Below, in pieces: positions 20,692 to 64,000 of a DNA stretch of 64,000 bases; positions within the stretch are counted from its first letter, which is position 1; every line of letters begins with the position of its first letter. Both the position numbers and the translations under genes were made by a program. The stretch spans positions 186,001 through 250,000 of the forward strand of contig CANRCK010000001.1 in assembly GCA_947629095.1 (NCBI GenBank), in the 5' to 3' direction. The stretch is from an uncultured Clostridia bacterium (lineage in GTDB: Bacteria; Bacillota; Clostridia; Christensenellales; Borkfalkiaceae). Under the pieces are notes generated by a model. It worked only from the letters and a program-made list of their open reading frames with translations, searched no databases and was not told the DNA's origin.

Positions 20692-21198
20692 TCAATATTT
20701 TAAAACGTTGAGATTTTTGTATGCGGTAAACCTTACAGTGTAGCCGTTGGTGACCAAGGGGGCGCCTTCATAGGAGAGGGCAAAGCCGCTGTTTTTATCC
20801 AGATTTTCAAAAAAGGCGTCTGCGCCGCCAACCGCGTCAACCTTGGTTACGAGCACTTCTTCGCAGTAGGGAAGCAGAGTTTTGTACATCATCATTCCGC
20901 CGATGACATACACTTTTTTACCGGCGGACTCGCACCGCTTTATCTCGGCAAAAAGCTCATCAAGCGATTGGACGACTATGCAGTCCTCCCGCTTTTCGCC
21001 GCCCGGATACAGGACTATGTTCAATCTGTCTTTAAGGGGTTTGCCGCCCGGAAAGGATTTAAGGGTATTGGAACCCATAACCACTACGTTGCCCGTTGTG
21101 GTGGCTTTGAAAAACTGCATATCGGCGGGGATTTTAAACATAAGGGCGTTGTTTTTGCCTATCCCCCACTCTCTGTCGGCATGTAAAATAGCTTTCAT
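20692..21198 (-). CDS. folA: Dihydrofolate reductase
   Basis: This 168-residue protein reduces dihydrofolate to tetrahydrofolate with NADPH. It shows the N-terminal 'WGIGKNNALMFKIPADM' loop-helix with the substrate-binding acid at Asp26, the VMGSNTLKSFPGGKPL cofactor segment, and the C-terminal VIGGMMMYKTLLPYCEEV motif. The start lies 3 bases after the thyA stop, so the two genes form a tight thyA-folA operon. The pairing is logical, since ThyA generates dihydrofolate. Confidence 0.93.
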   Translation of the reverse strand: MKAILHADREWGIGKNNALMFKIPADMQFFKATTTGNVVVMGSNTLKSFPGGKPLKDRLNIVLYPGGEKREDCIVVQSLDELFAEIKRCESAGKKVYVIGGMMMYKTLLPYCEEVLVTKVDAVGGADAFFENLDKNSGFALSYEGAPLVTNGYTVRFTAYKNLNVLKY

Positions 21199-21201
21199 TT
21201 T

Positions 21202-22032
21202 CTACTCCGCCACGGGAATATCGTATTTTTTTGTATTGCACACGTAATTCGTCAGCCTGAAGCTGTCAACCGTGAAATCATAAAAATCGGTGACGCTTTT
21301 ATCCACCTCGAGCTCGGGCGCGGGATAGCGGGGCATTTCAATAATTTCCTTTACCATATCTATATGGCGGTCGTAGATGTGGGCGTCGGCAATTACGTGG
21401 ACAAGCTCGCCCGCCTTGAAGCCCGTGACCTGCGCTATCATCATAAGGAGCGCTGCGTACTGTGCGACGTTCCAATTGTTTGCGGTGAGCATATCCGCGG
21501 AACGCTGGTTGAGAATTGCGTTGAGCGTGTTGCCAGAAACGTTGAAAGTCATGGAATATGCGCACGGATAGAGATGCATTTCGTGCAAATCCGCAAACGT
21601 GTAGATATTTGTGAGAATCCTGCGGCTGGCAGGGTTGTGCTTTAAATCGTAGAGAACCCTGTCGACCTGGTCGAACTCCCCTTCCGCATACTTGTTTTTT
21701 ACGCCGAGCTGATAGCCGTAAGCCTTGCCGATACTGCCGTTTTCATCCGCCCATTGGTCCCAGATTTTTGAGTGAAGGTCGTGCACGTTGTTGCTTTTTT
21801 TCTGCCATATCCATAGAATTTCGTCCAGGCAGGATTTAAAAGCCGTGCGGCGGATGGTGAGAAGCGGAAACTCTTCCCTGAGGTTATAGCGGTTGACTAT
21901 GCCGAATTTTTTTATGGTGTGCGCGGGCGTGCCGTCCGACCAGCGGGGACGGACGTCCCTGTCGGTATCCCACACGCCGTGCTCCAGAATATCGTGCATA
22001 TTTGCAATAAAAATATCGTCGGCTCTGCTCAT
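21202..22032 (-). CDS. thyA: Thymidylate synthase
   Basis: This 276-residue protein makes dTMP from dUMP using methylene-tetrahydrofolate. The nucleophile is Cys157 in MHLYPCAYSMTF, followed by the phosphate-binding NQRSADM and the NNWNVAQYA helix. The substrate arginines are present in RRTAF and SRRIL. The ribosome site AAAAGGAGC is placed correctly before the ATG. A consensus promoter lies directly upstream. It is first in the thyA-folA operon. Confidence 0.95.
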   Translation of the reverse strand: MSRADDIFIANMHDILEHGVWDTDRDVRPRWSDGTPAHTIKKFGIVNRYNLREEFPLLTIRRTAFKSCLDEILWIWQKKSNNVHDLHSKIWDQWADENGSIGKAYGYQLGVKNKYAEGEFDQVDRVLYDLKHNPASRRILTNIYTFADLHEMHLYPCAYSMTFNVSGNTLNAILNQRSADMLTANNWNVAQYAALLMMIAQVTGFKAGELVHVIADAHIYDRHIDMVKEIIEMPRYPAPELEVDKSVTDFYDFTVDSFRLTNYVCNTKKYDIPVAE

Positions 22033-22052
22033 CTTTTGCTCCTTTTTGAGAT

Positions 22053-22081
22053 ATTATATACCTTGCGCCGCGGCAAGTCAA
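22053..22081 (-). promoter_or_regulatory. Sigma-A promoter of thyA-folA
   Basis: On the minus strand there is TTGACT (22076-22081), a 17-bp spacer, then TATAAT (22053-22058). The start point is expected about 15 nt before the thyA ATG. The -35 element sits just after the stop codon of the upstream dehydrogenase gene. Confidence 0.85.
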
Positions 22082-22091
22082 TTAAATAAAT

Positions 22092-22874
22092 TTAAAATGC
22101 GTCCTTTTGCGTGCGCGCTCGGCTCCTTGCAATATAGCGGAGTTTTATGCCCTGCGGAACAGTTTTTGAAAGGGCGCAGATAAGCTTGTTTAAGCCGCCC
22201 ACAACTATTTTGCGCTTGCCTTTTTTTGCGGCTTTTAAGCTCTTGGTTGCCACATATTCGGGGGTCTTTGCGGATTTTCTTGCCCAGAACCCGAGTGAAT
22301 TTATATATTCCACCACGTCGGCGCGGGTATATATCGACCCGGGAATTACAGCCGTTACGGTTACGCACTTACCCTTTGTTTCTTCGCCGAGGGCAATGGA
22401 AAAATCGATGAGAGCGCCCTTGCAAGCCGAGTACAGAGCAAAATACGGCATTGGCTGAAGCCCGCACACGCTGCAAATATTTATTATTTTTAAATTCGAA
22501 GCCCGGTGCTTGACGGCAAAATTGCACATGGATACTGCCGCTTCAAAATTTATGCGGGTCTGGAAAGTAAGCTTTTGCTCGTCGTACTCTTCGAAAGGCT
22601 TTTGGATATCGGCGCCCGCGACGTTGATAAGCATATTGAACGAATAGCCCTCAGCCGCGGCAAAAAGATTTTTGCGGTCCTCCCCGCGGGTGAGGTCTGC
22701 GGCAAAAAAACTGCAATTGACCCCCGGATATGCCGCAACGAGCGAAGTTTTAAGGTCTTTTAGTTTGTTGATATCCCTGCCTGTTATAAACAGATTGCAG
22801 CCAAGGCTTGCAAGCTCTTTGCAAAAAGCAGTGCCAAGCACGCCCGTGGCGCCCGTAATTAAAGCATATTCCAT
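22092..22874 (-). CDS. Short-chain dehydrogenase/reductase, NAD(P)-dependent
   Basis: This 260-residue SDR has the cofactor loop GATGVLG at residues 8-14, an NVAGAD strand end, and the catalytic Tyr148-x3-Lys152 (YSACK) with Ser135 upstream. The C-terminal region (residues 200-260) is basic and hydrophobic, as in the membrane-associated 3-ketoacyl or hydroxysteroid-type SDRs (the 'KKGKRKIVVGGLNKL' pattern). The substrate is not determinable. It is unrelated in detail to the other SDR at 17920. It ends 11 bases before the thyA promoter. Confidence 0.8.
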   Translation of the reverse strand: MEYALITGATGVLGTAFCKELASLGCNLFITGRDINKLKDLKTSLVAAYPGVNCSFFAADLTRGEDRKNLFAAAEGYSFNMLINVAGADIQKPFEEYDEQKLTFQTRINFEAAVSMCNFAVKHRASNLKIINICSVCGLQPMPYFALYSACKGALIDFSIALGEETKGKCVTVTAVIPGSIYTRADVVEYINSLGFWARKSAKTPEYVATKSLKAAKKGKRKIVVGGLNKLICALSKTVPQGIKLRYIARSRARTQKDAF

Positions 22875-22968
22875 ACTGCACCCCTTGAACTATTGTAGCA
22901 TTTATTAAAATCTTTGGCAAATAACGTATGAGCCATTTTAAAAATAGCTGCCCAAATGTAAATTTTAA

Positions 22969-22997
22969 TTGACTGTTTTAAAAAAACATTATATAAT
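22969..22997 (+). promoter_or_regulatory. Sigma-A promoter of tRNA-Pro
   Basis: TTGACT (22969-22974), a 17-bp A-rich spacer and TATAAT (22992-22997) precede the mature tRNA by 10 bases. This spacing is typical for a single tRNA gene. Confidence 0.88.
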
Positions 22998-23007
22998 GTT
23001 AACGTAT

Positions 23008-23083
23008 CGAGGCGTAGCGCAGTTGGTAGCGCGTATGGTTCGGGACCATAAGGTCGTGGGTTCGAATCCCGTCGCCTCGACCA
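23008..23083 (+). tRNA. tRNA-Pro, anticodon CGG, with encoded CCA
   Basis: A full cloverleaf can be drawn. The acceptor stem is CGAGGCG with CGCCTCG, the D arm GCGC-loop-GCGC, and the anticodon stem TATGG with CCATA around the loop TTCGGGA. The T arm has the TTCGAAT loop, and the discriminator A is followed by CCA. The anticodon CGG reads the proline codon CCG, frequent in the host genes here. It has its own promoter and terminator and stands alone. Confidence 0.95.
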
Positions 23084-52530: not shown

Positions 52531-53172
52531 AATAACCCGCCCGTTTGCATTGAGGACGAGTTGCCCTTTGAAATCCCCGACAGTTGGGCGTGGTGTAAGC
52601 TGACAAGCATTAGTTACTCTGTTGGAACAAAATATAATCAAATTTTATCAAGCGCAGTCCTTAAAGAGGGCGCAATTCCCGTTGTAAGTCAAAGCCAAAA
52701 TTTAACAGACGGATATTCTAACGATATTGAACGGCAAATTACGATTCTTCCCCTAATTATGTTTGGAGATCATACAAAAGTCGTTAAATACATAGATTTT
52801 CCTTTTATAATAGGCGCAGATGGAACTAAATTTCATATGCCTATAATCGTTTTTCCAAGATACTTATATTTTTTAATGCTGGTCTGCGCCGGCTCGATTC
52901 CGTCCCGTGGTTATGCAAGACATTATTCGATATTGACAGCGCAATATCTTCCGCTGCCGCCGCTGGCGGAACAGGAGCGGATTGTTGCGGAGATTGAGAA
53001 GTACGAGCCGCTTATTGCGGAGTACGATAAATTGGAGAAAGAAAAAAGCAAGCTCGACGGCGAGATTTACGACAAACTCAAAAAGTCTATCCTGCAATAT
53101 GCCATACAAGGTAAACTTGTTCCGCAGGAGCCGACCGACGAACCCGCAAGCGTTCTTCTTGAAAAAATTCGC

Positions 53173-53246
53173 GCCGAAAAGAAAGCCAAACTCGGCAAAA
53201 AATACGTCGATAGTTTCATCTACAAAGGTGATGATAACTGCTATTA
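53173..53246 (+). repeat. Inverted repeat 2, left copy (74 bp perfect)
   Basis: Every base matches the reverse complement of 55873-55946. It encodes the end of the conserved central region of HsdS, just before the second recognition domain. Similarity at lower identity continues upstream for over 200 bp. Confidence 0.9.
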
Positions 53247-53259
53247 TGAGAAGGTGGGC
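53235..53259 (+). repeat. Inverted repeat 3, left copy (25 bp)
   Basis: This sequence is identical to the reverse complement of 54366-54390, at the start of silent cassette B. It overlaps the end of repeat 2. Confidence 0.82.
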
Positions 53260-53786
53260 AATAACGCGCCCGTTTTGCTTGAAAATTTGCCGTTCGATAT
53301 ACCCGACAGTTGGTGCTGGGTGCGGTTGGGAACAATAGTAGACTTTTCTAAAAGCATTTCAATATCGCCAAATACAATCGAAGAAAGCGCGTGGATTTTA
53401 GATTTGGAAGATATAGAAAAAGACAGCGGAAAGGTTTTATGCAAAAAGCGGAAAAGAACATTAAAAGTACAAAGCGTTAAACATCAATTCAAGACGGGAG
53501 ACGTACTTTACAGCAAGCTGCGCCCGTATTTGAATAAAGTCGTTATTGCCGATGAGGACGGGTACTGCACTTCAGAGATTTTAGTGTTTAATTTTGTGCC
53601 GATTTGTAATAGATACGCCCAACTCTACTTGATGAGTCCGTATTTTGTCGATTACGCCATGGCGGGCGCTTATGGCGTAAAAATGCCACGGTTGGGAAGC
53701 GACAGAGGCAATAACGCTTTTATGCTTATTCCCCCGCTACAAGAACAATTAAGAATTGCTGATCAAGTAGACAAAATCTTCGCTAA

Positions 53787-53820
53787 CATAAAAGACGAGG
53801 CTTAAACCTCGTCTTTTATG
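53787..53820. terminator. Bidirectional hairpin where the two silent cassettes meet
   Basis: A 14-bp perfect inverted repeat (CATAAAAGACGAGG and its complement) surrounds CTTAAA. It contains both stop codons and ends in TTTT on each strand. Both cassettes end in a shared I-K-D-E coding sequence. Confidence 0.75.
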
Positions 53821-54390
53821 TAGTCTAAAATAAATTTTATTTGCTGACAGATACGCTGCTGTTCGTTTATCGGTGGAATCGGAATGAGTGCTGTCCTGAC
53901 TTGATCCGTTCCGAAACGTTGTTGCCCTGCCGTTCCAGAAAACTTTTGTATTCCGTACTCTATGAAATACGTCGATTTGACATACCATAAAAGATATTCA
54001 GGCAAGATCGTATTTGCGTACGGGCGCAAGATATGTAATTCCGTTGTCCCCGCACCATAACCGTTTTCCAAATCATAAAATACCGCCGATTTTCTGTTTT
54101 GAAAGCAAGGCGTTATTTTGGCAAAGCCGACGTCGCCGTCGCGGAAATGCGTAAAACCGCTTTTTACGTCTTTCCATAAACGTGGGACATAGCAAAAGTG
54201 ATTTTTGAAACCGTCGTCAAGCGATTTCATTTCCACGAACGACACCTTTATATTGTCGTCAATATTGTTGCGTGGATTCAGAATTACCAAGTTATCCAGC
54301 CTTGCCCAAGCCCAAGAATCGGGGATTTCAAAGGGCAAAATATCCGTAATGTTTTTGACTTCGCCGCCCACCTTCTCATAATAGCAGTTA
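53802..54390 (-). pseudogene. hsdS: Silent hsdS cassette B: one recognition domain
   Basis: The minus-strand frame reads from NCYYEKVGGEVKNITDILPF through PFEIPDSWAWARLDNL to the end FILDYIKDEV. It holds one target-recognition domain and a C-terminal PPINEQQRI helix, with no start region. The frame stays open a further 48 codons upstream, but that part does not look like HsdS and overlaps the recombinase gene's leader. Repeat 3 would let it exchange with the second domain of cassette A, and through repeat 2 reach the active gene. Confidence 0.75.
54366..54390 (-). repeat. Inverted repeat 3, right copy (25 bp)
   Basis: The reverse complement is identical to 53235-53259. It lies at the 5' end of silent cassette B. 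Confidence 0.82.
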
Positions 54391-54431
54391 GGGTGAATAT
54401 ATAAATGCGCTTCGCTACCGAGAAACCGCCG

Positions 54432-54461
54432 AAAATAGTAAAATATTTGTATTACTATTTT
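54432..54461. promoter_or_regulatory. Palindrome directly before the tyrosine recombinase
   Basis: AAAATAGTAA, 10 bases, then TTACTATTTT lie immediately upstream of the strong ribosome site (TAGGAGG, 54462-54468). It could be an operator, or an mRNA hairpin that shields or ends transcription. Its position suggests control of recombinase level. Confidence 0.55.
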
Positions 54462-54477
54462 TAGGAGGTTTAACGAT

Positions 54478-55281
54478 ATGTTAGACGAATTCGAGAAACA
54501 TTTGCGGCGGGAGAATCTGTCGCAAAACACCATTTCCGCCTATTTGCTGACCGTGCGTATGTACAAGCAACTTTCGGGCGAAATAACAAAGGCGAACCTT
54601 TTGGCGTTCAAAGGTTACCTCATGGAGACTTACAAACCCAAAACGGTCAATCTACGGATACAGGCGATCAACAAGTATCTCGACTTTATCAAAAAGCCAA
54701 ACTTGCGGCTGTCGCCCGTAAAGATCCAGCAGAAAAACTTTTTGGAGAATGTGATCAGCGACGCCGATTACAAATTTCTGAAAAACCGACTCAAAAGGGA
54801 CGGCAATATGGAATGGTATTTTGTCGTCCGCTACCTTGCGGCGACGGGCGCACGCGTGAGTGAACTCATTCAAATCAAAGTCGAGCACGTCTTTAACGGA
54901 TACTTCGACTTGTATTCCAAGGGAGGAAAACTCCGTCGGCTTTACATACCGAAAACGCTGAAAACCGAAACGGAAGCATGGCTAAATGAGAAAGGAATCA
55001 CGAGCGGATACCTATTTTTGAATCGCTTCGGCGAACGCATTACCGTGCGCGGGATCGCCCAGCAACTCAAAAATTATGCCGCCAAGTACGGTTTGAATCC
55101 CAAAGTTGTCTATCCGCATTCGTTCCGGCATCGGTTTGCCAAAAACTTTTTGGAGAAGTATAACGACATTTCCCTGCTTGCCGACCTTATGGGGCACGAG
55201 AGTATTGAAACGACGCGAATTTACCTACGCAAGACCGCCAGCGAACAGCAGGAGATCGTAGACAAAATCGTTACATGGTAA
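54478..55281 (+). CDS. Tyrosine recombinase, probable HsdS-switching invertase
   Basis: This 267-residue protein has an N-terminal SAM-like core-binding domain (about 1-90) and a C-terminal catalytic domain. The full active-site set is present: Arg126 (GARVSEL), a Lys in SKGGKLRRL, His214-x-x-Arg217, His240 and nucleophile Tyr249. It lies inside the segment bounded by the inverted repeats, between silent cassettes and active hsdS, as in phase-variable type I systems where the linked recombinase inverts hsdS parts. It has AGGAGG 9 nt before the ATG. The gene itself would be inverted by recombination at repeats 1 and 2. Confidence 0.88.
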   Translation: MLDEFEKHLRRENLSQNTISAYLLTVRMYKQLSGEITKANLLAFKGYLMETYKPKTVNLRIQAINKYLDFIKKPNLRLSPVKIQQKNFLENVISDADYKFLKNRLKRDGNMEWYFVVRYLAATGARVSELIQIKVEHVFNGYFDLYSKGGKLRRLYIPKTLKTETEAWLNEKGITSGYLFLNRFGERITVRGIAQQLKNYAAKYGLNPKVVYPHSFRHRFAKNFLEKYNDISLLADLMGHESIETTRIYLRKTASEQQEIVDKIVTW

Positions 55282-55284
55282 AGC

Positions 55285-55312
55285 AAACCCCCTCGTTTTC
55301 GAGGGGTTTTCG
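55285..55312. terminator. Terminator between the recombinase and hsdS
   Basis: The stem CCCCTCG-TTTT-CGAGGGG is flanked by AAA and TTTT. It ends the plus-strand recombinase message and the minus-strand hsd message. Confidence 0.85.
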
Positions 55313-55313
55313 A

Positions 55314-56885
55314 TTATAAATTCGCAAAGATTTCATTTATCTTATCGACGATCCGTTGTTGCTCCGCCAGCGGCGGTAGCGGCAGTATCATTTTTGATAA
55401 CGTTTGCCCATTGCAATTTGGTTGAGCGGTTGCAATTGTACCGTCGCGCAATTGTACCCAATATAATGGACTTTCCATAAAATATTTTAAGTATTGAGAG
55501 GATAATCTATCGCTATAACGGGTCCTAATCAGATACCCTGCATAAATTGCTTCTTCCGAAACATTTTTTACGAGATACGATTTTCCTACCGTGCCGCCCG
55601 TCCGCGCAAAGAGTATATCGTTTTCTTTAAGGCGATAAGTTTCTATTTCATCTTCGTCAATATCACAAAACGGAACATGGCTCCAATCAACTTCATTATC
55701 ATGAATATCGCTAATTCGCACCATTTTTATTCGACCGCTCACTTTTGCAGGCGCATTATACCCGTACTGAATTGAGTCGGAGAGATTGCCCCAACGTACC
55801 CATTCCCAACAATCGGGCAAGTCAAACGGAACTTCAACGGGCTTATCTTCGGCTACGCCGTCAATGTGTTCGTAATAGCAGTTATCATCACCTTTGTAGA
55901 TGAAACTATCGACGTATTTTTTGCCGAGTTTGGCTTTCTTTTCGGCACGGATTTTTTCAAGCAAAACGCTTGCCGGCTCGTCGGTCGGTTCCTGCGGGAC
56001 AAGTTTGCCTTGTATCGCATATTGCAGGATAGACTTTTTGAGCTTGTCGTAAATCTCGCCGTCGAGCTTGCTTTTCTCTTGCTCCAATTTATCGTACTCC
56101 GCGATCAACGGTTCGTACTTTTCAATCTCGGCGACGATCCGTTCTTGCTCCGCCAGCGGGGGTATGGGTATGAGCAATCGAATTAAGCGTTCCTTACCTA
56201 TGTTATAAAACGCTTGACCAGATTTTTTTGTTATTGACTTAATTTGCGAATTCAAATACGGACTTTGAAGAGCATATAAGAGAAACTTTCCCAATATATC
56301 GTTACTATAAAACGGGCGGCAGATAAAGACAAAACCGCCGGCACTTACGTTATCATAGTCTTTTTCGATTATAGCAATTTTGCCTACGTTTTCTAAACTT
56401 GTTACAGCAGGGGTAATCAAATCGTTTTTTCTTAACATAATGTTTTCGGCAATTAGGCTGTAATCGATAAAAATATCATTATCATAAAACTTATAGCCGT
56501 TATCGGATATATTGCCGCCGCGCAAAATTCGTATTTTTGTTTTGTCGTTACTTGCTTGGTCCTTTTTGAACGAGGCTCCTGTTTGGCATGATAATAGAGA
56601 ACCGAGACGAGCGACAGTCCAACCGTCAGGCAAATCAATGTCGATTTCGTCGGTAATGTCCTTGACTTCGCCCCCAATCTTCTCATAATGGCGATTATCA
56701 TCACCCTTAAAAATGACGGAATTGCTTTTATCTTTCTTGATTTTCCCTTCTTTGATAAGGCGCTGTTTTTCGGCACGGATCCTTTCGAGCAAAACAGAAG
56801 CCGGCTCGTCGCCGGGGTTTTGCGGAACGAGCTTGCCTTGAATCGCCATTTGAAGAATGGATTTGCGTAGTTGTTCAGCTTTCAT
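55314..56885 (-). CDS. hsdS: Type I restriction-modification specificity subunit, active copy
   Basis: This 523-residue protein has a constant N-terminal helix (LRKSILQMAIQGKLVPQNPG), a first recognition domain from about residue 80, the central conserved helices with PPLAEQERIVAEIEKYEPLI, and a second recognition domain from about residue 335 (FDLPDCWEWVRWG). It ends in PPLAEQQRIVDKINEIFANL. Each domain reads one half of the split DNA target. The start overlaps hsdM by 11 bases, so it is the expressed copy. It contains one copy each of repeats 1 and 2, so it can be rewritten by inversion. It is longer than typical HsdS because of a duplicated N-terminal linker. Confidence 0.92.
   Translation of the reverse strand: MKAEQLRKSILQMAIQGKLVPQNPGDEPASVLLERIRAEKQRLIKEGKIKKDKSNSVIFKGDDNRHYEKIGGEVKDITDEIDIDLPDGWTVARLGSLLSCQTGASFKKDQASNDKTKIRILRGGNISDNGYKFYDNDIFIDYSLIAENIMLRKNDLITPAVTSLENVGKIAIIEKDYDNVSAGGFVFICRPFYSNDILGKFLLYALQSPYLNSQIKSITKKSGQAFYNIGKERLIRLLIPIPPLAEQERIVAEIEKYEPLIAEYDKLEQEKSKLDGEIYDKLKKSILQYAIQGKLVPQEPTDEPASVLLEKIRAEKKAKLGKKYVDSFIYKGDDNCYYEHIDGVAEDKPVEVPFDLPDCWEWVRWGNLSDSIQYGYNAPAKVSGRIKMVRISDIHDNEVDWSHVPFCDIDEDEIETYRLKENDILFARTGGTVGKSYLVKNVSEEAIYAGYLIRTRYSDRLSSQYLKYFMESPLYWVQLRDGTIATAQPNCNGQTLSKMILPLPPLAEQQRIVDKINEIFANL
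55873..55946 (-). repeat. Inverted repeat 2, right copy (74 bp perfect)
   Basis: The reverse complement is identical to 53173-53246. It lies in hsdS immediately before the second recognition domain, the right point for swapping that domain. Confidence 0.9.
56673..56698 (-). repeat. Inverted repeat 1, right copy (26 bp)
   Basis: The reverse complement is identical to 52505-52530. It lies in hsdS just before the first recognition domain. Confidence 0.85.
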
Positions 56886-58392
56886 CTTTCTCTCCCAACA
56901 GCGCCATAATTTCGCCGAGAACGCGGTCGATATTTGCGTCTAAACTTGCGCGCTTCCCCCTGTATTCCTTGATAAGGTCCTGCGGGGGAAGAATTTCTTC
57001 CTCTCTGTGAGGATAACCACACAAATCGATATTGTAATTCAAAGCCTCAATCTCTTGAACGGTATATTTCTTTGCCTTCGGGAATTCGTCAACAATCATT
57101 TCTTCCCGGTTATTCCACCAATCAATCACAGGCTGAAAATGTTCGGACTGCATCGGCTTGGTCTTGGAGAAATGCTTGTACCCTTCGGGCATATCTAAAC
57201 GATAAAACCATGTTTCCGTTGTCGTCTTTGTTTTATCGAAAAACAGGATATTCGTCGTAATGGGAGTATACGGCGCAAATACGCTACCCGGCATTCGGAT
57301 TACCGTATGTAAATTACACTCGGTGAGCAGTTTCTTTTTGATTGCAACTTTTGCATTATCGGTGCCGAACAAGAAACCATCGGGAAGAATAACTGCGGCT
57401 CTGCCGTTTTGTTTCAGACGATACATAATCACCGACATAAACAGGTCTGCAGTTTCGCTGCTTGCCAAATCGGACGGGAAGTGATTTTTTACGTCAGCTT
57501 TTTCGCTCCCGCCATACGGAGGATTCATCAGAACAACGTCAAACTGATCTTTTTCGGTATAATCCAAAACATTATGAAGTAAAGAATTATCATGGTAAAT
57601 CCGCGGCATATCTACGTCATGCAACAGCATATTGGTTACGCAAAGAATATATGGGAACTGTTTTTTCTCGACGCCATAAATGGAATTATAGATTTTCTCC
57701 ACATCATCCGTGCTCTTCTTCTTTGTCTCCAATTCTTTCAGCCAACTTACCAAAAATCCGCCCGTGCCGCAAGCAAAGTCCGCGCAATGTTCGCCAATCT
57801 GCGGATTGATCATCTTTGCCATGAAATCCGTGACGGCGCGCGGCGTATAAAATTCGCCTGCCGAGCCTGCGCTTTGTAATTCACGCAGAATGGTTTCGTA
57901 AATTTCTCCGAAAGCATGACTTTCTTCGTAATCACTTAAATCCAAATCATCGATTACATTGATAACCTGACGGAGAAGCACGCCGTCCTTCATATAGGTA
58001 TTTGCATCTCTAAACGTTGTTTGGACGATCGCTTTTTTAATGGGCGTTGTCGGATCGACTTGAATACCGCCTATCAGCACATTTACGTTCGGATCTTTAA
58101 TATCGTTGCCTTTCAGAACGGGAAAAAGCGTATTGTTGACAAAATTCAGAAGAGCCTCTCCCGTCATGCCTTTTCCGACTTCTTCATGTGCCCAATTGCG
58201 CCAACGGCAAGTAGTTGGGATAATCGACGTATATTTATCATCCTCAAATTCCCAATCTCTTTCCTTTGTGTCGTACACTTTTAAGAATAATAGCCACGCG
58301 ATTTGCTCAATCCTCTGCGCGTCGCCGTTGATACCCGCATCGTTGCGCATAATATCGCGCAATCTCTTTATAAATCCCGAAATATTACTCAT
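56875..58392 (-). CDS. hsdM: Type I restriction-modification DNA methyltransferase subunit
   Basis: This 505-residue N6-adenine methyltransferase has an N-terminal helical domain, then GEFYTPRAVTDFM (from 180), the S-adenosylmethionine motif DFACGTGG (205-212) and catalytic NPPY (290-293). Together with HsdS it methylates the host target, and with HsdR it forms the restriction complex. It lies 3 bases after hsdR and overlaps hsdS by 11 bases, forming one operon hsdR-hsdM-hsdS. Confidence 0.95.
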   Translation of the reverse strand: MSNISGFIKRLRDIMRNDAGINGDAQRIEQIAWLLFLKVYDTKERDWEFEDDKYTSIIPTTCRWRNWAHEEVGKGMTGEALLNFVNNTLFPVLKGNDIKDPNVNVLIGGIQVDPTTPIKKAIVQTTFRDANTYMKDGVLLRQVINVIDDLDLSDYEESHAFGEIYETILRELQSAGSAGEFYTPRAVTDFMAKMINPQIGEHCADFACGTGGFLVSWLKELETKKKSTDDVEKIYNSIYGVEKKQFPYILCVTNMLLHDVDMPRIYHDNSLLHNVLDYTEKDQFDVVLMNPPYGGSEKADVKNHFPSDLASSETADLFMSVIMYRLKQNGRAAVILPDGFLFGTDNAKVAIKKKLLTECNLHTVIRMPGSVFAPYTPITTNILFFDKTKTTTETWFYRLDMPEGYKHFSKTKPMQSEHFQPVIDWWNNREEMIVDEFPKAKKYTVQEIEALNYNIDLCGYPHREEEILPPQDLIKEYRGKRASLDANIDRVLGEIMALLGEKDES

Positions 58393-58395
58393 ATG

Positions 58396-60762
58396 TTATG
58401 CCGCCTTATAAATTTCTTTTTCAAGTTCCCTGACCGCCCGTATGTAACCTTCTCGGCCACCGAAAAGTTGAGCAATTTTCGCAGGTTTTCCGAATTTGAC
58501 AAAAGGGTCAAGTTTCAGAATGTCCATGTCTTCGATTTCATAGATACCGCTATCCGCATATTTTTCAAGCAACGCATCGAGAACTGCGCGTGCTGCACCG
58601 CCGTATTTTGCAAAAATGTTGCGTTTTTTTACGTTTTCAGCACGTTCCCGCCGTGTTAAGGGTTTCTGGTCAAAGGCGATATGGCAAATAAAATCGTAAT
58701 CGTCTATATCGCTCATGCCTTCATCCGCTTTAATCTGCTCTAAATCTATTCCGCGTTCAAGAAATAACTCCTGAATTTTTGCTTTTTTCTCTTCAGACGA
58801 CCATTGCAAAATAAAGTTACTGAGTGAAGAAAACTCGCTGTAAATATTTGCTTTTGTATAGTCGATGATGCTTTCTTGACGCAATAGTTTTCCATCTGTA
58901 TCGTATACCGCAACCATTTTTTGTAAGACAGATACTTTACAACCTCTACTGTCTACGACATATTTGTACTTTGGTTCTGTTGGCGGAGGAGGCATTATAA
59001 CGTCATCGCCGTCTGTAGTGTCTTTGGGTTCGATATGATGAAATTCCTCATTCTGTTCAACCGGTCCGTCCCAATCGGGATCTGCAAACAGCCGAGTAAC
59101 GCCGCGGAAATCCATAATAACGAAATGCGTTTTCCCATCATCCCAACGAAGCCTCGTGCCGCGGCCGATAATTTGCTTAAACTCCGTCATAGAACCAATC
59201 ATTTCGTCAATTACAATCAATTTAGCCATTTTGCAATCGACGCCTGTGGAAAGAAGTTTTGACGTTGTAGCTATCACCGGAAATTTTGCCGAAACGGAAA
59301 TAAAATAATCCAACTTATTTTTCCCGTAATCATCGCTACCGGTAATGCGAACAATGTAGTCCGGATCTTTTGCGCACATGTCCGCATTCAATTTGGTCAA
59401 GGCAATGCGCATACGCTCCGCCGCGTCTTCCGTAGCGCAGAATACGATGGTCTTTGCCATTCTATCAGTTGCTTTGAGATAGTTGGTTATCTCGTTTGCA
59501 ACCATGTCAATCCTATCCTGAATAATGATATTGTAATCATAATCGCTGTTATTATAAATGCGATCTTCAATTTCGTAACCGTAAATATCGCGCTGGCCTT
59601 TACGAGGGCGCCATTCGTCGTCGATATCGGTTTTGATACGTATTACCTTAAACGGCGCAAGAAAACCGTCGTCAATTCCCTCTTTCAAGCTGTATTTGTA
59701 AATCGGATCGCCGAAATAATCGATGTTGGAAATATAACTCGTTTCTTTCGGCGTTGCCGTCATGCCGATTTGGGTTGCCGATGAAAAATATTCCAACACT
59801 TTACGCCAGCGGCTTTCTTCTTTGGCGCTACCGCGGTGACACTCGTCCACGATAACGAGATCAAAGAAATCTTTATCAAATAGTTGTTTATAGTGCGCAA
59901 GCGTTTCTTCATCCGTCTCTTCTTCCGTCGCCTTGTTCCCCACCAATTGTTGATAGAGAGAAAAGTAAACTTGGTGCGAAGTGATGGTCGTTCTATCGTC
60001 TTTTGCAAAATTGATTTTATGTATCACCTTTTCAAGGGGTTTAAAATCCCCGTTGATGGTCTGATCGACGAGATTGTTTCGGTCTGCAAGATAAAGAATT
60101 TTCTGCTTCATACCGCTTTGCAATAAGCGGTAAACAATTTGAAATGCCGTATAGGTTTTTCCCGTTCCGGTTGCCATAACAAGAAGGATACGTTGTTGCC
60201 CCTTTGCAATCGCTTCTATTGTACGATTAACCGCAACCCGCTGATAATATCTCGGTGGATATGTATTTTGGCTGGTGTAATAGGGTTGATTGATAAGAGC
60301 ATATTCTGTTTTGGATAAACCTTGCCCGCCATTGATTTCTCTTTGATAACGGACAAAAAGTTCTTCGGGAGAAGGAAAATTATCTAACGCAATTTCCCTC
60401 TCAACTCCGGTAAGAAAGTCAAATTCTTGAAAGGCATCGCCGTTAGAACTGTATGCAAACGGCACATCCAACATTTTGGCATAATCTTTTGCCTGTTGCA
60501 TCCCGAAAGAAACGCTGTGGTTATTGTCTTTGGCTTCTATAACGGCAATGGGATAATTCTTGTTGAGAAATAGTACATAGTCTGCTTTTTTCGGAGGCTC
60601 ACGGCTGACCAAATTGCCACGCAGATTCACTTTACCGTCTGTAAACTGAACCTTGGTCTCCATGGTTATTTTGTCTTTCCAGCCCTTTGCTAAAATAGCA
60701 GGAGTAATATAATTTAACTTAATGTCTTCCTCTGTCATTTGTTTTTTATCGAGTATGCTCAT
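58396..60762 (-). CDS. hsdR: Type I restriction endonuclease subunit (EcoEI-like)
   Basis: This 788-residue protein has the N-terminal nuclease site Asp61...Glu76-Ala-Lys78 (IAVIEAKDN). The SF2 helicase motor has Walker A ATGTGKT (197-203), the DECH box (306-309), MTATPKET and the motif VI region QIIGRGTRL. The C-terminal region is EcoEI-like. It translocates DNA and cuts far from unmethylated sites. The start has AAAGGTTG upstream. The gene has an extended -10 promoter with a palindrome in its leader. Confidence 0.93.
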   Translation of the reverse strand: MSILDKKQMTEEDIKLNYITPAILAKGWKDKITMETKVQFTDGKVNLRGNLVSREPPKKADYVLFLNKNYPIAVIEAKDNNHSVSFGMQQAKDYAKMLDVPFAYSSNGDAFQEFDFLTGVEREIALDNFPSPEELFVRYQREINGGQGLSKTEYALINQPYYTSQNTYPPRYYQRVAVNRTIEAIAKGQQRILLVMATGTGKTYTAFQIVYRLLQSGMKQKILYLADRNNLVDQTINGDFKPLEKVIHKINFAKDDRTTITSHQVYFSLYQQLVGNKATEEETDEETLAHYKQLFDKDFFDLVIVDECHRGSAKEESRWRKVLEYFSSATQIGMTATPKETSYISNIDYFGDPIYKYSLKEGIDDGFLAPFKVIRIKTDIDDEWRPRKGQRDIYGYEIEDRIYNNSDYDYNIIIQDRIDMVANEITNYLKATDRMAKTIVFCATEDAAERMRIALTKLNADMCAKDPDYIVRITGSDDYGKNKLDYFISVSAKFPVIATTSKLLSTGVDCKMAKLIVIDEMIGSMTEFKQIIGRGTRLRWDDGKTHFVIMDFRGVTRLFADPDWDGPVEQNEEFHHIEPKDTTDGDDVIMPPPPTEPKYKYVVDSRGCKVSVLQKMVAVYDTDGKLLRQESIIDYTKANIYSEFSSLSNFILQWSSEEKKAKIQELFLERGIDLEQIKADEGMSDIDDYDFICHIAFDQKPLTRRERAENVKKRNIFAKYGGAARAVLDALLEKYADSGIYEIEDMDILKLDPFVKFGKPAKIAQLFGGREGYIRAVRELEKEIYKAA

Positions 60763-61021: not shown

Positions 61022-62341
61022 TTAATACTCCGTCAGCAAGAAGCCGAGATACAATGGAATGGTGAGGATATTATCGGTCTTGCCGACATTGTACTGCCCG
61101 AGCTTGATGACGCCGGCGACGTGGTATTTTTCGGGATGAGCGAGAATGGTCTTCGCGCTCTTGGTGTTGCCCGTTGTAGCTTTGACTTCCACGAGGTAGC
61201 ACCCGCCCTTGTAGCGCGTCACAAAGTCGATTTCAAGCCCCGAATCTTTGTGATAGTAGTAGAGTTTTCTGCCCATTTTCACAAAAATATCGGCAATCAG
61301 ATTTTCAAAAATTGCCCCCTTGTAACCGTAGAGATTGCCCTGCAAAATATCGTACTGGGTGCCATCCTCGAGCATGCTCACAAACAGCCCCGTATCGTTC
61401 ATGTAGACTTTGAAAACGTCCTGCATGGCATTTCCGTCGAGCGGCAGTTCGGGAAGTTCAAGATTATAACAGCGAGAGACGATCCCCGCGTCCTCGATCC
61501 ATTGCAGACTACCCGCAAACTTTGCCGCGGTTGCCCCCTTCTTCACTACGGAATATTGAAACTTCTTATTCTCCTTGCTGAGTTGCTTTGGAATGGACTG
61601 GAAGCACTCCCTTATTAGCGGCTTGTCCTTATCGTCGGCATATTTCACCATGTCGTCCTCGTAGGAACGAATAATGTCCCGTTGGAGCGTTAAGACGGCG
61701 TTCATTTGCTTGGTATCCACGAATTTCTGCACCACTTCGGGCATTCCGCCGACGACCGTGTATTGCAGCATGAGTTCCCGCATTTTGTTGTGCAGAGCCT
61801 CATGAACGGGCGTGGCGTTCTCCAAGCATTTTTTTAATGTTTTGATGACCTGCTCCCCGATCCCGTTCGCCCACAAAAATTCCTCGAAGTCAAGCGGCTT
61901 CATCTCAATGAGCGTTTCCGAACCGACGGGAACAGATTTGGGCTGTTTGCCGTAGCCTTTAACGCCGAGCAATGACCCCGTGCCGATGACATCGAACCTG
62001 CCGTCCTCTTTGAAGAATTTCAAAGCCGTGCGCGCCTCGGGGCAGTCCTGAATTTCGTCGAGGATAATAATGGTCTCATGCGGCACAAAAATCGCCCCGT
62101 CGCCGAGAAGCGCCGACATCATGATGATGAGGTCGTTCACTTCCAACGAGCCATTGAAAATGGAAATGTAATTGGGGTTTTTGAGGAAATTCAGATAGAC
62201 GACATGCTTGTAGTTTGCCTCTGCAAATGCTCTGACCGAGAAAGTCTTGCCGCATTGCCGTTGACCCTTGATAATAAGCGGACTTTTGTCGGGAGTATTT
62301 TTCCACTCTTTCAGCACGTTTTCGATCTTTCTTTTTAACAT
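61022..62341 (-). CDS. AAA-type ATPase with DUF4143 domain
   Basis: This 439-residue protein has Walker A GQRQCGKT (26-33), Walker B IIILDEIQDCP (91-101) and a following GTGSLLG sensor. The C-terminal half fits DUF4143 and ends in a PD-(D/E)xK-like stretch, LEIDFVTRYKGGCYLVEVKA, containing Asp and Glu-x-Lys at nuclease-like spacing. Such ATPases are very common, also in mobile islands, and their function is not established. It has a consensus promoter and the ribosome site AAGAGGTG. Confidence 0.85.
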   Translation of the reverse strand: MLKRKIENVLKEWKNTPDKSPLIIKGQRQCGKTFSVRAFAEANYKHVVYLNFLKNPNYISIFNGSLEVNDLIIMMSALLGDGAIFVPHETIIILDEIQDCPEARTALKFFKEDGRFDVIGTGSLLGVKGYGKQPKSVPVGSETLIEMKPLDFEEFLWANGIGEQVIKTLKKCLENATPVHEALHNKMRELMLQYTVVGGMPEVVQKFVDTKQMNAVLTLQRDIIRSYEDDMVKYADDKDKPLIRECFQSIPKQLSKENKKFQYSVVKKGATAAKFAGSLQWIEDAGIVSRCYNLELPELPLDGNAMQDVFKVYMNDTGLFVSMLEDGTQYDILQGNLYGYKGAIFENLIADIFVKMGRKLYYYHKDSGLEIDFVTRYKGGCYLVEVKATTGNTKSAKTILAHPEKYHVAGVIKLGQYNVGKTDNILTIPLYLGFLLTEY

Positions 62342-62373: not shown

Positions 62374-62402
62374 ATTATAACACAATGCAAAAACTTTTTC
62401 AA
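62374..62402 (-). promoter_or_regulatory. Sigma-A promoter of the DUF4143 ATPase gene
   Basis: The minus strand has TTGAAA (62397-62402), 17 bases and TATAAT (62374-62379). Confidence 0.8.
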
Positions 62403-62524
62403 AGGAGTTTTAGAAAAATATGAAAACTTTTTAAAACGACTTTTGTCGAAAAGTAAAATTTTTTCGTGAGAGTTCAGTAAGAAAATTCACCCCACAAAAA
62501 ATCCGCCTTCAACGTACAAATCTG

Positions 62525-62553
62525 TTGACACTTTATTTATTATTTGCTATACT
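62525..62553 (+). promoter_or_regulatory. Sigma-A promoter of the RNase III operon
   Basis: TTGACA (62525-62530), 17 bases and TATACT (62548-62553) are present. The predicted start point is near 62560, leaving a leader of about 175 nt before the ATG. Confidence 0.82.
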
Positions 62554-62559
62554 AATCTT

Positions 62560-62734
62560 GCAAAGGATATATTAACTTACGTTTTATATAGTTCCGTCAA
62601 AGTATCGCGGCTGTGCCGGAAATGTATAAAATTTAATTTAACATATTGTTTGCTTGCGGAATAGAGTGTCGTTTTCTATATGCAAGCTCTTTTTATATCC
62701 TTTGCGAAAAAAATTTTTTCGGAGGATATTTTTT
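62560..62734 (+). ncRNA. Structured 5' leader of the RNase III gene
   Basis: The first 12 predicted RNA bases (62560-62571, GCAAAGGATATA) are the exact complement of 62694-62705, just upstream of the ribosome site GGAGG (62721-62725), and would close the leader into one large loop. Inside are TTCCG/CGGAA and a hairpin GCTTGC...GCAAGC (62652-62687) with inner ATAGA/TCTAT pairs followed by TCTTTTTATA, which looks like a terminator. Bacterial rnc genes can be autoregulated through RNase III cleavage of leader stems, so a similar loop is plausible here. Confidence 0.55.
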
Positions 62735-63709
62735 ATGTTACAAAAAAACGCGATTGAAACCATTGAAAGCACGATCGGATATGAGTTTACCGATAAACAG
62801 CTTCTATCCCAAGCATTCACTCGCTCATCCTATCACTATGAGCATCCCGAAGTTCAAGACAACGAACTCTTGGAGTTTATCGGAGACTCCGTATTGTCCC
62901 TCATTGTCGTAAACATTCTTACCGACAAATACACAGGTCGTGACGGAAGCGGTCTATATGCCTGCCGCGATGAAGGCGATTTCAGCATGTTAAAGAGTGC
63001 ACTCGTCAACAAACAATTCCTTGCAAAAAGGATGAGCAAATACTGTTTGCAAGATTATCTTCGCATGAGCATCGGCGACGAAGGACAAGGCATCCGTAAC
63101 GGGAAATCAGTCTTGGAAGACTTGTTTGAAAGCATTGTCGGCGCCGTCTATCTGGATACAAATCGCAACTTAAAAAAGACCGAAAGGGTTGTGAGAAATA
63201 TCCTCGATATAGATAGATTCTTAAAGGAAAACGACGGCGAAATACGAATCAGTTACAAAAACGATGTACAGGAATGGTGTCAAAGATACGGCTACGATTT
63301 ACCTACTTATGATACAAGGCAGAACTGGGACGGTTTTGTTTCCTATTGTGAAATCGAAGAACTCGGTGTACGCAAGCGCGGCGAAGGACACAATGGCAAA
63401 GAGGCGGAAAACAATGCCGCAAAGTATGCTCTTGAGCAATTGGAGACAGAGTTCGAGCCGTCGATAAACAATTTTATAGTGACTTACGAGAATGCGATAA
63501 ATATGCTTCAAGAATATTGCCGTCAAGAAGGTCTCGATCTGCCCTATTACGAAACAGTCAATGATGCAATACATGAGGATAACAGCCACACTTTTACCGT
63601 TCGTTGCCATATGAATGGTAGATGGATTGAAGGAACCGGTAGCCGAATCAAAGAGGCCAAAAAGCAATCGGCGTATAATATGCTTAAAGCAATGGGCGTA
63701 ATTGAGTGA
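62735..63709 (+). CDS. Accessory ribonuclease III with two dsRNA-binding domains
   Basis: The protein has 324 residues from the ATG at 62735 (GGAGG 9 nt upstream). The RNase III domain (about 1-150) has the signature DNELLEFIGDSVLS with Glu44, Glu47 and Asp51. It also has Glu80 in RDEGDFSML and Asp129/Glu132 in LEDLFESIVGAVYLD, so every catalytic acid is kept. Two dsRNA-binding domains follow (about 175-245 with GEGHNGKEAENNAA, and 258-322 with GTGSRIKEAKKQSA). Standard bacterial RNase III has one and about 230 residues. The housekeeping copy is presumably elsewhere. It is followed after 10 bases by a DUF2971-like gene. Cleavage of double-stranded RNA is expected; a defence or toxin-control role is inferred from context. 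Confidence 0.88.
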   Translation: MLQKNAIETIESTIGYEFTDKQLLSQAFTRSSYHYEHPEVQDNELLEFIGDSVLSLIVVNILTDKYTGRDGSGLYACRDEGDFSMLKSALVNKQFLAKRMSKYCLQDYLRMSIGDEGQGIRNGKSVLEDLFESIVGAVYLDTNRNLKKTERVVRNILDIDRFLKENDGEIRISYKNDVQEWCQRYGYDLPTYDTRQNWDGFVSYCEIEELGVRKRGEGHNGKEAENNAAKYALEQLETEFEPSINNFIVTYENAINMLQEYCRQEGLDLPYYETVNDAIHEDNSHTFTVRCHMNGRWIEGTGSRIKEAKKQSAYNMLKAMGVIE

Positions 63710-63719
63710 GGCAAACGCA

Positions 63720-64000
63720 ATGGAATATGATAAGTTTTTAGAAGAATCTTGTATTATTTGCGATCGTACCTATCCTCTCACGGAAATTGAACAATTAGGG
63801 CTGGATGGATTTGGTGAAAAAGTTCGTATCACGCCAATCAGTCTATTCAAATACTTTCCAAACACTCGCCAATGGGACAAAAAAGAAAAAAGATATCGCA
63901 ATTTTTCATATGAGGCATTGACGAACAATACTGTATTTTTACAGGATGCCGAAAATTTTGATGATAGTTTTGATTGTGCTATTGATTTGGATTGGGAGAA
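63720..64000 (+). CDS. DUF2971-like protein, N-terminal part (runs off the window)
   Basis: The frame starts at the ATG at 63720, 10 bases after the RNase III stop, with TGAGG about 8 nt upstream, and is open to the right edge (93 codons). A short N-terminal part has a CIICDRTYPL pair of cysteines. Then FKYFPNTRQWDKKEKRYRNF, LTNNTVFLQDAENF and FDDSFDCAIDLDW follow the DUF2971 pattern (K-Y...L.N..l.f..p..F-[ND]-[DS]-[PS]-F-D). DUF2971 proteins are uncharacterised and frequent in phage-defence neighbourhoods. The assignment rests on one motif region. Confidence 0.5.
   Translation, partial: MEYDKFLEESCIICDRTYPLTEIEQLGLDGFGEKVRITPISLFKYFPNTRQWDKKEKRYRNFSYEALTNNTVFLQDAENFDDSFDCAIDLDWE

What the first reader, a model, noticed from the sequence alone, without database searches (positions are those of the whole stretch)
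62525..64000. Two-gene unit: RNase III with two dsRNA-binding domains plus a DUF2971-like protein
Bacterial RNase III normally has one dsRNA-binding domain and is a core gene near recA, era or ffh-type neighbours. Here a complete catalytic domain with all metal-binding acids is followed by two such domains. It sits on a mobile, defence-rich segment and is coupled to a second gene whose start reads as DUF2971. A dsRNA nuclease paired with a domain of unknown function common in defence regions could be an uncharacterised anti-phage or toxin-antitoxin module: dsRNA sensing and cutting, with the partner as effector.
Basis: partly seen in the sequence, partly recalled or inferred. Interest (0 to 1): 0.78.

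Follow-up and report, generated by a model that had tools for sequence, protein, structure and literature searches.

The report
Mobile RNase III with leader RNA
A spare, mobile copy of a double-stranded-RNA-cutting enzyme carries its own conserved folded RNA in front of it and an exchangeable helper gene behind it, and its relatives often sit next to anti-virus genes, which suggests an undescribed bacterial defence module.

The parts
62525..62553 (+). sigma-70-like promoter TTGACA-17-TATACT with TG before the second hexamer
   Evidence: 11 of 12 matches; the stretch shared with close relatives begins at 62560, 6 nt further on. Start of transcription is inferred.
62560..62734 (+). structured leader RNA upstream of RNase III; the covariance-model match covers 62584-62734
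   Evidence: 62555-62745 folds with z -4.49, 0 of 200 shuffles as low; conserved in the window and 5 close relatives, among which the partner differs; model R1 39.7 bits, E 2.9e-4, the window not being in the training set
62735..63709 (+). accessory RNase III, 324 aa, catalytic domain plus two dsRBDs
63720..64000 (+). 5' part of the DUF2971 partner gene (ATG 63720, alternative TTG 63702; continues to 64817 in the genome)
   Evidence: a relative, L101, modelled with an ADP-ribosyltransferase-like fold
61022..62341 (-). AAA_14/DUF4143 ATPase, left neighbour (context, not part of the unit)
52561..60762 (.). type I restriction-modification locus with hsdS-like pieces in opposite orientations and a tyrosine-recombinase-like gene (context)
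   Evidence: the recombinase and most hsdS pieces are read from the sequence

Best explanation
This is a three-part mobile cargo unit: (1) a structured leader RNA, (2) a tandem-dsRBD RNase III, (3) in part of the family an exchangeable partner gene, here DUF2971. Shown: the anatomy, the conservation and covariation of the RNA, its link to this RNase III family, the partner exchange, and the defence-gene neighbourhood. Inferred: the unit defends against phages or other mobile elements. At rest the enzyme would bind and cut its own leader and keep its level low. Foreign double-stranded RNA would draw the enzyme away, so that leader cutting stops, expression rises and foreign dsRNA is cut. RNase III leaves 5'-phosphate, 2-nt 3'-overhang ends (recessed 5' ends). 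The partner would act on such RNA: Thg1-like partners by templated 3'-5' filling of the recessed end, DUF2971 possibly by ADP-ribosylating nucleic acid as DarT and Tpt1-type enzymes do (activities recalled).
For: Catalytic acids kept in 94 of 94 (D51 in 93 of 94) and a basic second dsRBD (three of the four acids lie inside the search patterns, D51 does not). Leader z mean -4.08 in 97 leaders against -1.19 in 120 control upstream regions. Leader pairs in 24 sequences: 94.8% paired, 17 of 24 pairs with changes on both sides, 0 of 500 shuffles as high on any measure, collapse when slid. Leader at the RNase III 5' end in 46 of 74 accessory sources outside the model (positions checked), 0 of 25 control regions, 0 in the housekeeping rnc region. 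Partner exchange at a fixed junction. Thg1 in 2 of 101 relatives, both adjacent. PADLOC models matched by nearest neighbours: 187 against 24 at 1e-8, 23 against 1 at 1e-60. ADP-ribosyltransferase-type chains head the structure list for DUF2971. Product ends and E. coli leader autoregulation: passages of PMC3386247. Templated 5'-end repair by Thg1-like proteins: passages of PMC3701042.
Confidence: 0.42

Rival explanations
1. The RNase III is a stand-alone accessory enzyme with an autoregulatory leader. Downstream genes are unrelated cargo of a recombination hot spot, so DUF2971 and RNase III do not work together.
For: Tight coupling no commoner than for other genes in these loci. Most of 98 loci lack a recurrent partner. 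DUF2971 is usually alone. The slot also holds a cyclase gene, 200 nt away, in L086.
Against: Thg1 is rare (2 of 101, 4 of 391 genomes), yet 8 of 98 loci carry it, 7 of them directly downstream with starts 4-17 nt away. All 3 DUF2971 hits found in the flanks lie within 0.6 kb downstream on the same strand (the profile was built from two of them, so remote DUF2971 genes may be missed).
Confidence: 0.3
2. The leader is not only cis-acting. It is released as a small RNA that acts in trans, as guide, decoy or RNA antitoxin, and the unit works somewhat like a type III toxin-antitoxin or another RNA-protein defence system.
For: Long leader with conserved unpaired sequence as well as stems, GNRA-type capped hairpin in many members. 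Strong matches found only with this family.
Against: It ends at the start codon, and its last hairpin holds the ribosome-binding site in many members, as expected of a cis-regulator. A repeat array as in type III systems was not looked for with a tool.
Confidence: 0.17
3. The gene serves the mobile elements themselves (RNA processing or control of their own transcripts), not defence.
For: In L038-L042 the gene lies shortly behind serine-recombinase-like genes in viral contigs (read from the sequences); one relative is on a Ruminococcus albus plasmid.
Against: Many defence-model matches among nearest neighbours. The end of an element next to its recombinase is also where defence cargo is often carried (recalled).
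Confidence: 0.15
4. It backs up a weakened host RNase III: the genus' own rnc lacks the Asp equivalent to E. coli D114.
For: 22 of 22 same-genus sequences compared lack it (21, one more).
Against: Only 8 of 101 relatives carry a whole or nearly whole accessory copy, plus one fragment in G015, and the family occurs in many groups other than this genus.
Confidence: 0.06

Closest known systems
Housekeeping bacterial RNase III (rnc) with leader autoregulation, E. coli rncO
   Same: catalytic domain and dsRBD; structured RNA at the 5' end of its own mRNA (statement read in a passage of PMC3386247)
   Different: two dsRBDs, accessory and mobile, a leader family shared across Clostridia, Mycoplasmatota and viral contigs with no match in Rfam 15, exchangeable downstream partner
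Thg1-like proteins (bacterial 3'-5' polymerases, PF04446)
   Same: the partner of 8 related loci belongs to this family (Pfam for L024, L025, L055, L102; profile for the others)
   Different: bacterial neighbours reported in PMC2904730 are polynucleotide kinase, MACRO and RNA ligase genes (passages); RNase III is not among them in what I saw
PADLOC candidate PDC-S31 / DUF2971
   Same: the window's second gene matches it
   Different: a single-gene candidate (the S numbering as I recall it); here it follows RNase III
DarT / Tpt1 ADP-ribosyltransferases
   Same: best structure matches of a DUF2971 relative
Type III toxin-antitoxin (ToxIN-like, recalled)
   Same: RNA element in front of an RNase gene
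   Different: RNase III domain rather than ToxN; RNA is a covarying leader that runs to the start codon

Membership tests
RNase III (TIGR02191, PF14622/PF00636) | family profile above cut-off | tested here: met
   180.9 bits against 166.25; Pfam
RNase III (TIGR02191, PF14622/PF00636) | four metal-binding acids | tested here: met
   E47, D51, D129, E132
housekeeping rnc | single dsRBD and core-gene location | tested here: not met
   two dsrm stretches; the core copy is elsewhere
DUF2971 (PF11185) | profile above gathering score | tested here: met
   32.9 bits against 22
ADP-ribosyltransferase fold | fold match of DUF2971 | tested here: inconclusive
conserved RNase III-DUF2971 pair | pairing kept across genomes | tested here: not met
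   3 of 98 loci; another partner in the nearest relative
known Rfam RNA family | match of the leader | tested here: not met
   none up to E 1 in window 62400-62900; only tRNAs at gathering score in 10 loci; one chance-level hit, 12.9 bits against 38, in L098
described defence system with an RNase III core | PADLOC model for the RNase III | tested here: not met
   0 families up to E 1 in PADLOC-DB of 2023
type III toxin-antitoxin | RNA repeat array before the toxin gene | not tested
   no repeat search was run on the leader
type III toxin-antitoxin | ToxN-family toxin | tested here: not met
   Pfam gives only RNase III and dsrm above their cut-offs

The most novel reading that the evidence does not exclude
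A new kind of RNA-protein defence system: a conserved structured RNA, encoded directly in front of a dedicated dsRNA-sensing RNase III, acts as its decoy and sensor. When foreign dsRNA competes for the enzyme, the unit switches on and a swappable second enzyme (3'-5' RNA polymerase, ADP-ribosyltransferase-like DUF2971 or others) modifies the RNase III-made RNA ends.
Probability: 0.3. Interest if true: 0.92.

Novelty: categorically new. Interest (0 to 1): 0.8.

Why it matters
Bacterial innate immunity that senses double-stranded RNA through an RNase III is, to my knowledge, not established, although dsRNA sensing is central in eukaryotes. The leader RNA family gives a precise, testable handle (binding, cleavage, expression). 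Partner exchange behind a constant RNase III gives a list of RNA-acting candidate effectors, and a first functional suggestion for DUF2971 (nucleic-acid ADP-ribosylation) and for orphan bacterial Thg1-like enzymes. If the leader is plain autoregulation and the partners are chance cargo, what remains is a new mobile RNase III subfamily with a new cis-regulatory RNA.

Tried and rejected
Rejected: a fixed RNase III-DUF2971 pair; this being the only rnc; a general excess of tight downstream partners (L024 is not among the 25 because of how its Thg1 frame was called). Led nowhere: plasmid and phage record searches gave mostly housekeeping-type matches, with one match over 80% of the query, on a Ruminococcus albus plasmid, which has Asn at D51. 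Viral scans with A3 and with P0003 found no relative. The model of the ~470-aa partner was poor (pLDDT 64) and was not searched. Papers, search listings only unless said otherwise: RNase III with DUF2971 and defense 0; 'DUF2971' 1 paper, a genome reannotation by its title; 'accessory RNase III' 0; RNase III, Thg1, operon, defense island: 12 hold three of the four, the 8 listed have no use of Thg1; of 15 listed, two CRISPR papers hold both Thg1 and RNase III and were not opened; some searches were listings from which I opened PMC3701042 and PMC3386247 (passages). In PMC7824862 and PMC12657218 only the Thg1 passages were seen. The library is open access only, so 'not in print' is not claimed.

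Rows dropped: 6 loci taken as duplicates (4 of the same contig as another locus, 2 viral contigs with the same unit) before partner counts; the remaining 98 still hold near-copies, such as L110 and L116 or L115 and L123. L232 was left out of the control neighbour set because one called frame spanned it; 24 of 52 eligible accessory loci were left out at random to match the control number. Four partial RNase III proteins were left out of the tree (98 to 94).

Leader hits that do not fit: G075 and G052, E 0.003-0.006, no RNase III beside them; G037 at a contig end. Of the 6 sense-strand leader hits in the class sample, 4 are training members, so mainly the lack of other hits is informative there; in relatives G050 is a training member.

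Full report
1. What is there. The window holds a complete RNase III gene at 62735-63709 (+): 324 aa, catalytic domain, two dsRBDs, all four acids. TTGACA-17-TATACT lies at 62525-62553. The next gene starts 10 nt after the stop codon (ATG 63720; TTG 63702 overlaps it) and, completed from the genome, is a 365-aa DUF2971 protein that matches PADLOC PDC-S31. The genome's own rnc is elsewhere, in what I read as plsX-rnc-smc-ftsY. To the left lie an AAA_14/DUF4143 ATPase and a type I restriction system and, read from the sequence, a serine recombinase. To the right lie a PDC-S53 helicase and a second DUF4143 ATPase.

2. The family. Eight of 101 related genomes, the window's included, carry such an accessory gene; one (G069) has a shorter protein with one dsRBD. 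A ninth, G015, has a fragment at a contig end. At E 1e-35, 6 of 391 class genomes match, own included. Viral contigs gave 9 loci. The genome scan gave 263 relatives among 282 candidate stretches, of which the best 80 were kept. Hosts named in those records are Clostridia, Acholeplasma-, Anaeroplasma- and Izemoplasma-type bacteria, Treponema and one Scatousia. In 94 aligned proteins E47, D129 and E132 never vary and D51 varies once. The loci were picked with patterns that cover three of these four residues, so only D51 is free of that selection. The second dsRBD keeps a basic K-K-x-A-K motif in most rows; the window has I305 at its first position.

3. Partner exchange. The closest gene (L054, 84% aa) shares 81% DNA identity with the window from 62559 to 63714, that is from the start of the leader to just behind the RNase III stop codon. 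The following gene is then Thg1-like instead of DUF2971. In the tree of 94 the window and L054 are sisters (100/99). Their sister group carries two further Thg1 types: L055 and L058 one, L056 another only 24% identical to L055's, although these three RNase III proteins are near neighbours in the tree. A distant RNase III clade has two of these Thg1 types again: L024's Thg1 is 52% identical to L054's, L025's 50% to L056's. A cyclase gene follows, 200 nt away, in L086. Profile scans of the flanks held (98 loci, 1.27 Mb) found Thg1 in 8 loci, 7 directly downstream and L099 about 1 kb upstream; the ~470-aa protein in 6; and DUF2971 in 3 (L003, which is the window's, L101, L069), all within 0.6 kb downstream on the same strand. 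The profiles were built from members of these same sets, so remote relatives can be missed. Thg1 is rare: 2 of 101 relatives, both adjacent to an accessory RNase III, and 4 of 391 class genomes, none at a place where one search found an accessory RNase III. Against this: tight downstream genes in general are not enriched (25 of 87 against 173 of 579), 13 other DUF2971 copies in relatives have no RNase III in the short stretch held, and none of 80 viral DUF2971 loci has one.

4. The leader RNA. Window 62555-62745 folds at -50.7 kcal/mol, z -4.49. The window and five close relatives, whose partners differ (one is unknown because its contig ends), conserve the stretch from GCAAAGGATA to TATATCCTTTGC. 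Over 97 leaders of the family the mean z is -4.08 (81 below -2); 120 upstream regions of other genes in the same loci give -1.19 (34 below -2). A motif TGNAAGT, which caps a hairpin with a GNRA-type loop in many members, occurs in 60 of 97 leaders and in 6.4% of 1940 control windows; the window's own clade lacks it. Twenty-four leaders of other clades align well. 94.8% of pair cells are standard, 17 of 24 pairs change on both sides, no shuffle of 500 reaches any measure, and sliding the partner strand destroys the signal. The structure was derived from the same alignment, which favours it over the slid versions. The model built from them finds the sense strand in 46 of 74 accessory sources outside the training set at E 0.01; all 46 end within -4 to +62 nt of the start of the RNase III match. 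It finds nothing in 25 control regions or in the housekeeping rnc region; 3 further hits at that level are the antisense strand of the same elements. The window leader scores 39.7 bits, E 2.9e-4, moderate because its clade is divergent. Whole-genome searches give no other strong place. In 391 class genomes the 6 sense hits are all at accessory RNase III genes (4 are training members). In 101 relatives G000, G001, G025, G050 and G015 fit, G037 is at a contig end, and two weak hits (G052, G075) have no RNase III beside them. The scans of over 40 genomes used stricter filters that lose weak matches. Rfam showed no such family.

5. Neighbourhood. The two nearest ORFs on each side were taken for 28 accessory loci (112 proteins) and for 27 control regions from other genomes of the class (108 proteins). 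PADLOC models matched at 1e-8: 187 against 24. At 1e-60: 23 against 1 (SspH), among them type I and type II restriction, Cas3/Cas5 of subtype I-C, Gabija GajA, AbiEi/AbiEii, BREX BrxA and candidate systems. These are counts of models, not of proteins: one protein can match several, and matches such as DndA/SspA may be ordinary cysteine desulfurases. The controls are not from the same genomes.

7. Mechanism. Shown: anatomy, conservation, linkage, exchange, neighbourhood. Inferred: leader cutting by its own enzyme, as E. [quoted passage not shown] titration by foreign dsRNA; partner action on RNase III-made ends. RNase III leaves 5'-phosphate ends with 2-nt 3' overhangs (same paper). Thg1-like proteins repair truncated tRNA 5' ends by templated 3'-5' addition in vitro (passages in PMC3701042), so an RNase III product end is a plausible substrate. 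[quoted passage not shown] This looks like a switch but was not tested.

8. Novelty. No curated library searched here describes the RNase III as part of a defence system, the RNA or the combination, and the paper searches named under Tried and rejected found none. If the leader is simple autoregulation and the partners are unrelated cargo, the proper rating drops to a new variant of a known kind.

Noticed in passing
L004:6593-7219 (own housekeeping rnc), L017 and L265-L284: All 22 same-genus housekeeping RNase III sequences compared lack the Asp equivalent to E. coli D114 (PSAYEA, PSVYEA or SSVYEA instead of LADTVEA); of 8 rnc shown from other families of the order, 7 keep it and one has Asn.
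   Followed up: partly
window 52561-56885: Type I hsdS-like pieces in opposite orientations around a tyrosine-recombinase-like gene (54478-55281), with 293-nt inverted repeats at 91% (52957-53249 and 55870-56162): looks like a phase-variable specificity switch.
   Followed up: partly
L051, L107, L115, L123 (also L092, L111): Small acidic ORFs (about 55-85 aa) directly behind the RNase III in one part of the tree; a possible small protein inhibitor or partner.
   Followed up: no
L049 (G395): An accessory RNase III beside Cas3 and Cas5 genes of subtype I-C and, read from the sequence, a CRISPR array; the same contig carries a second accessory RNase III.
   Followed up: no
L086: The slot behind RNase III holds a class III nucleotide cyclase gene followed by small genes, one with hydrophobic stretches, reminiscent of Pycsar, which is recalled and was not tested.
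   Followed up: no
L054:7822-9738 and tRNA at 10684-10756: In the related species the RNase III-Thg1 unit lies between a thyA-like gene and a tRNA-Pro match. In the window the same landmarks (20692-23083) lie 40 kb from the unit, so its place differs.
   Followed up: partly
L099:6265-6999: A Thg1-like gene lies about 1 kb upstream of an RNase III that is followed by the ~470-aa partner, with no second RNase III in front of it.
   Followed up: partly
window 1124-15625: One open frame of 4833 aa.
   Followed up: no
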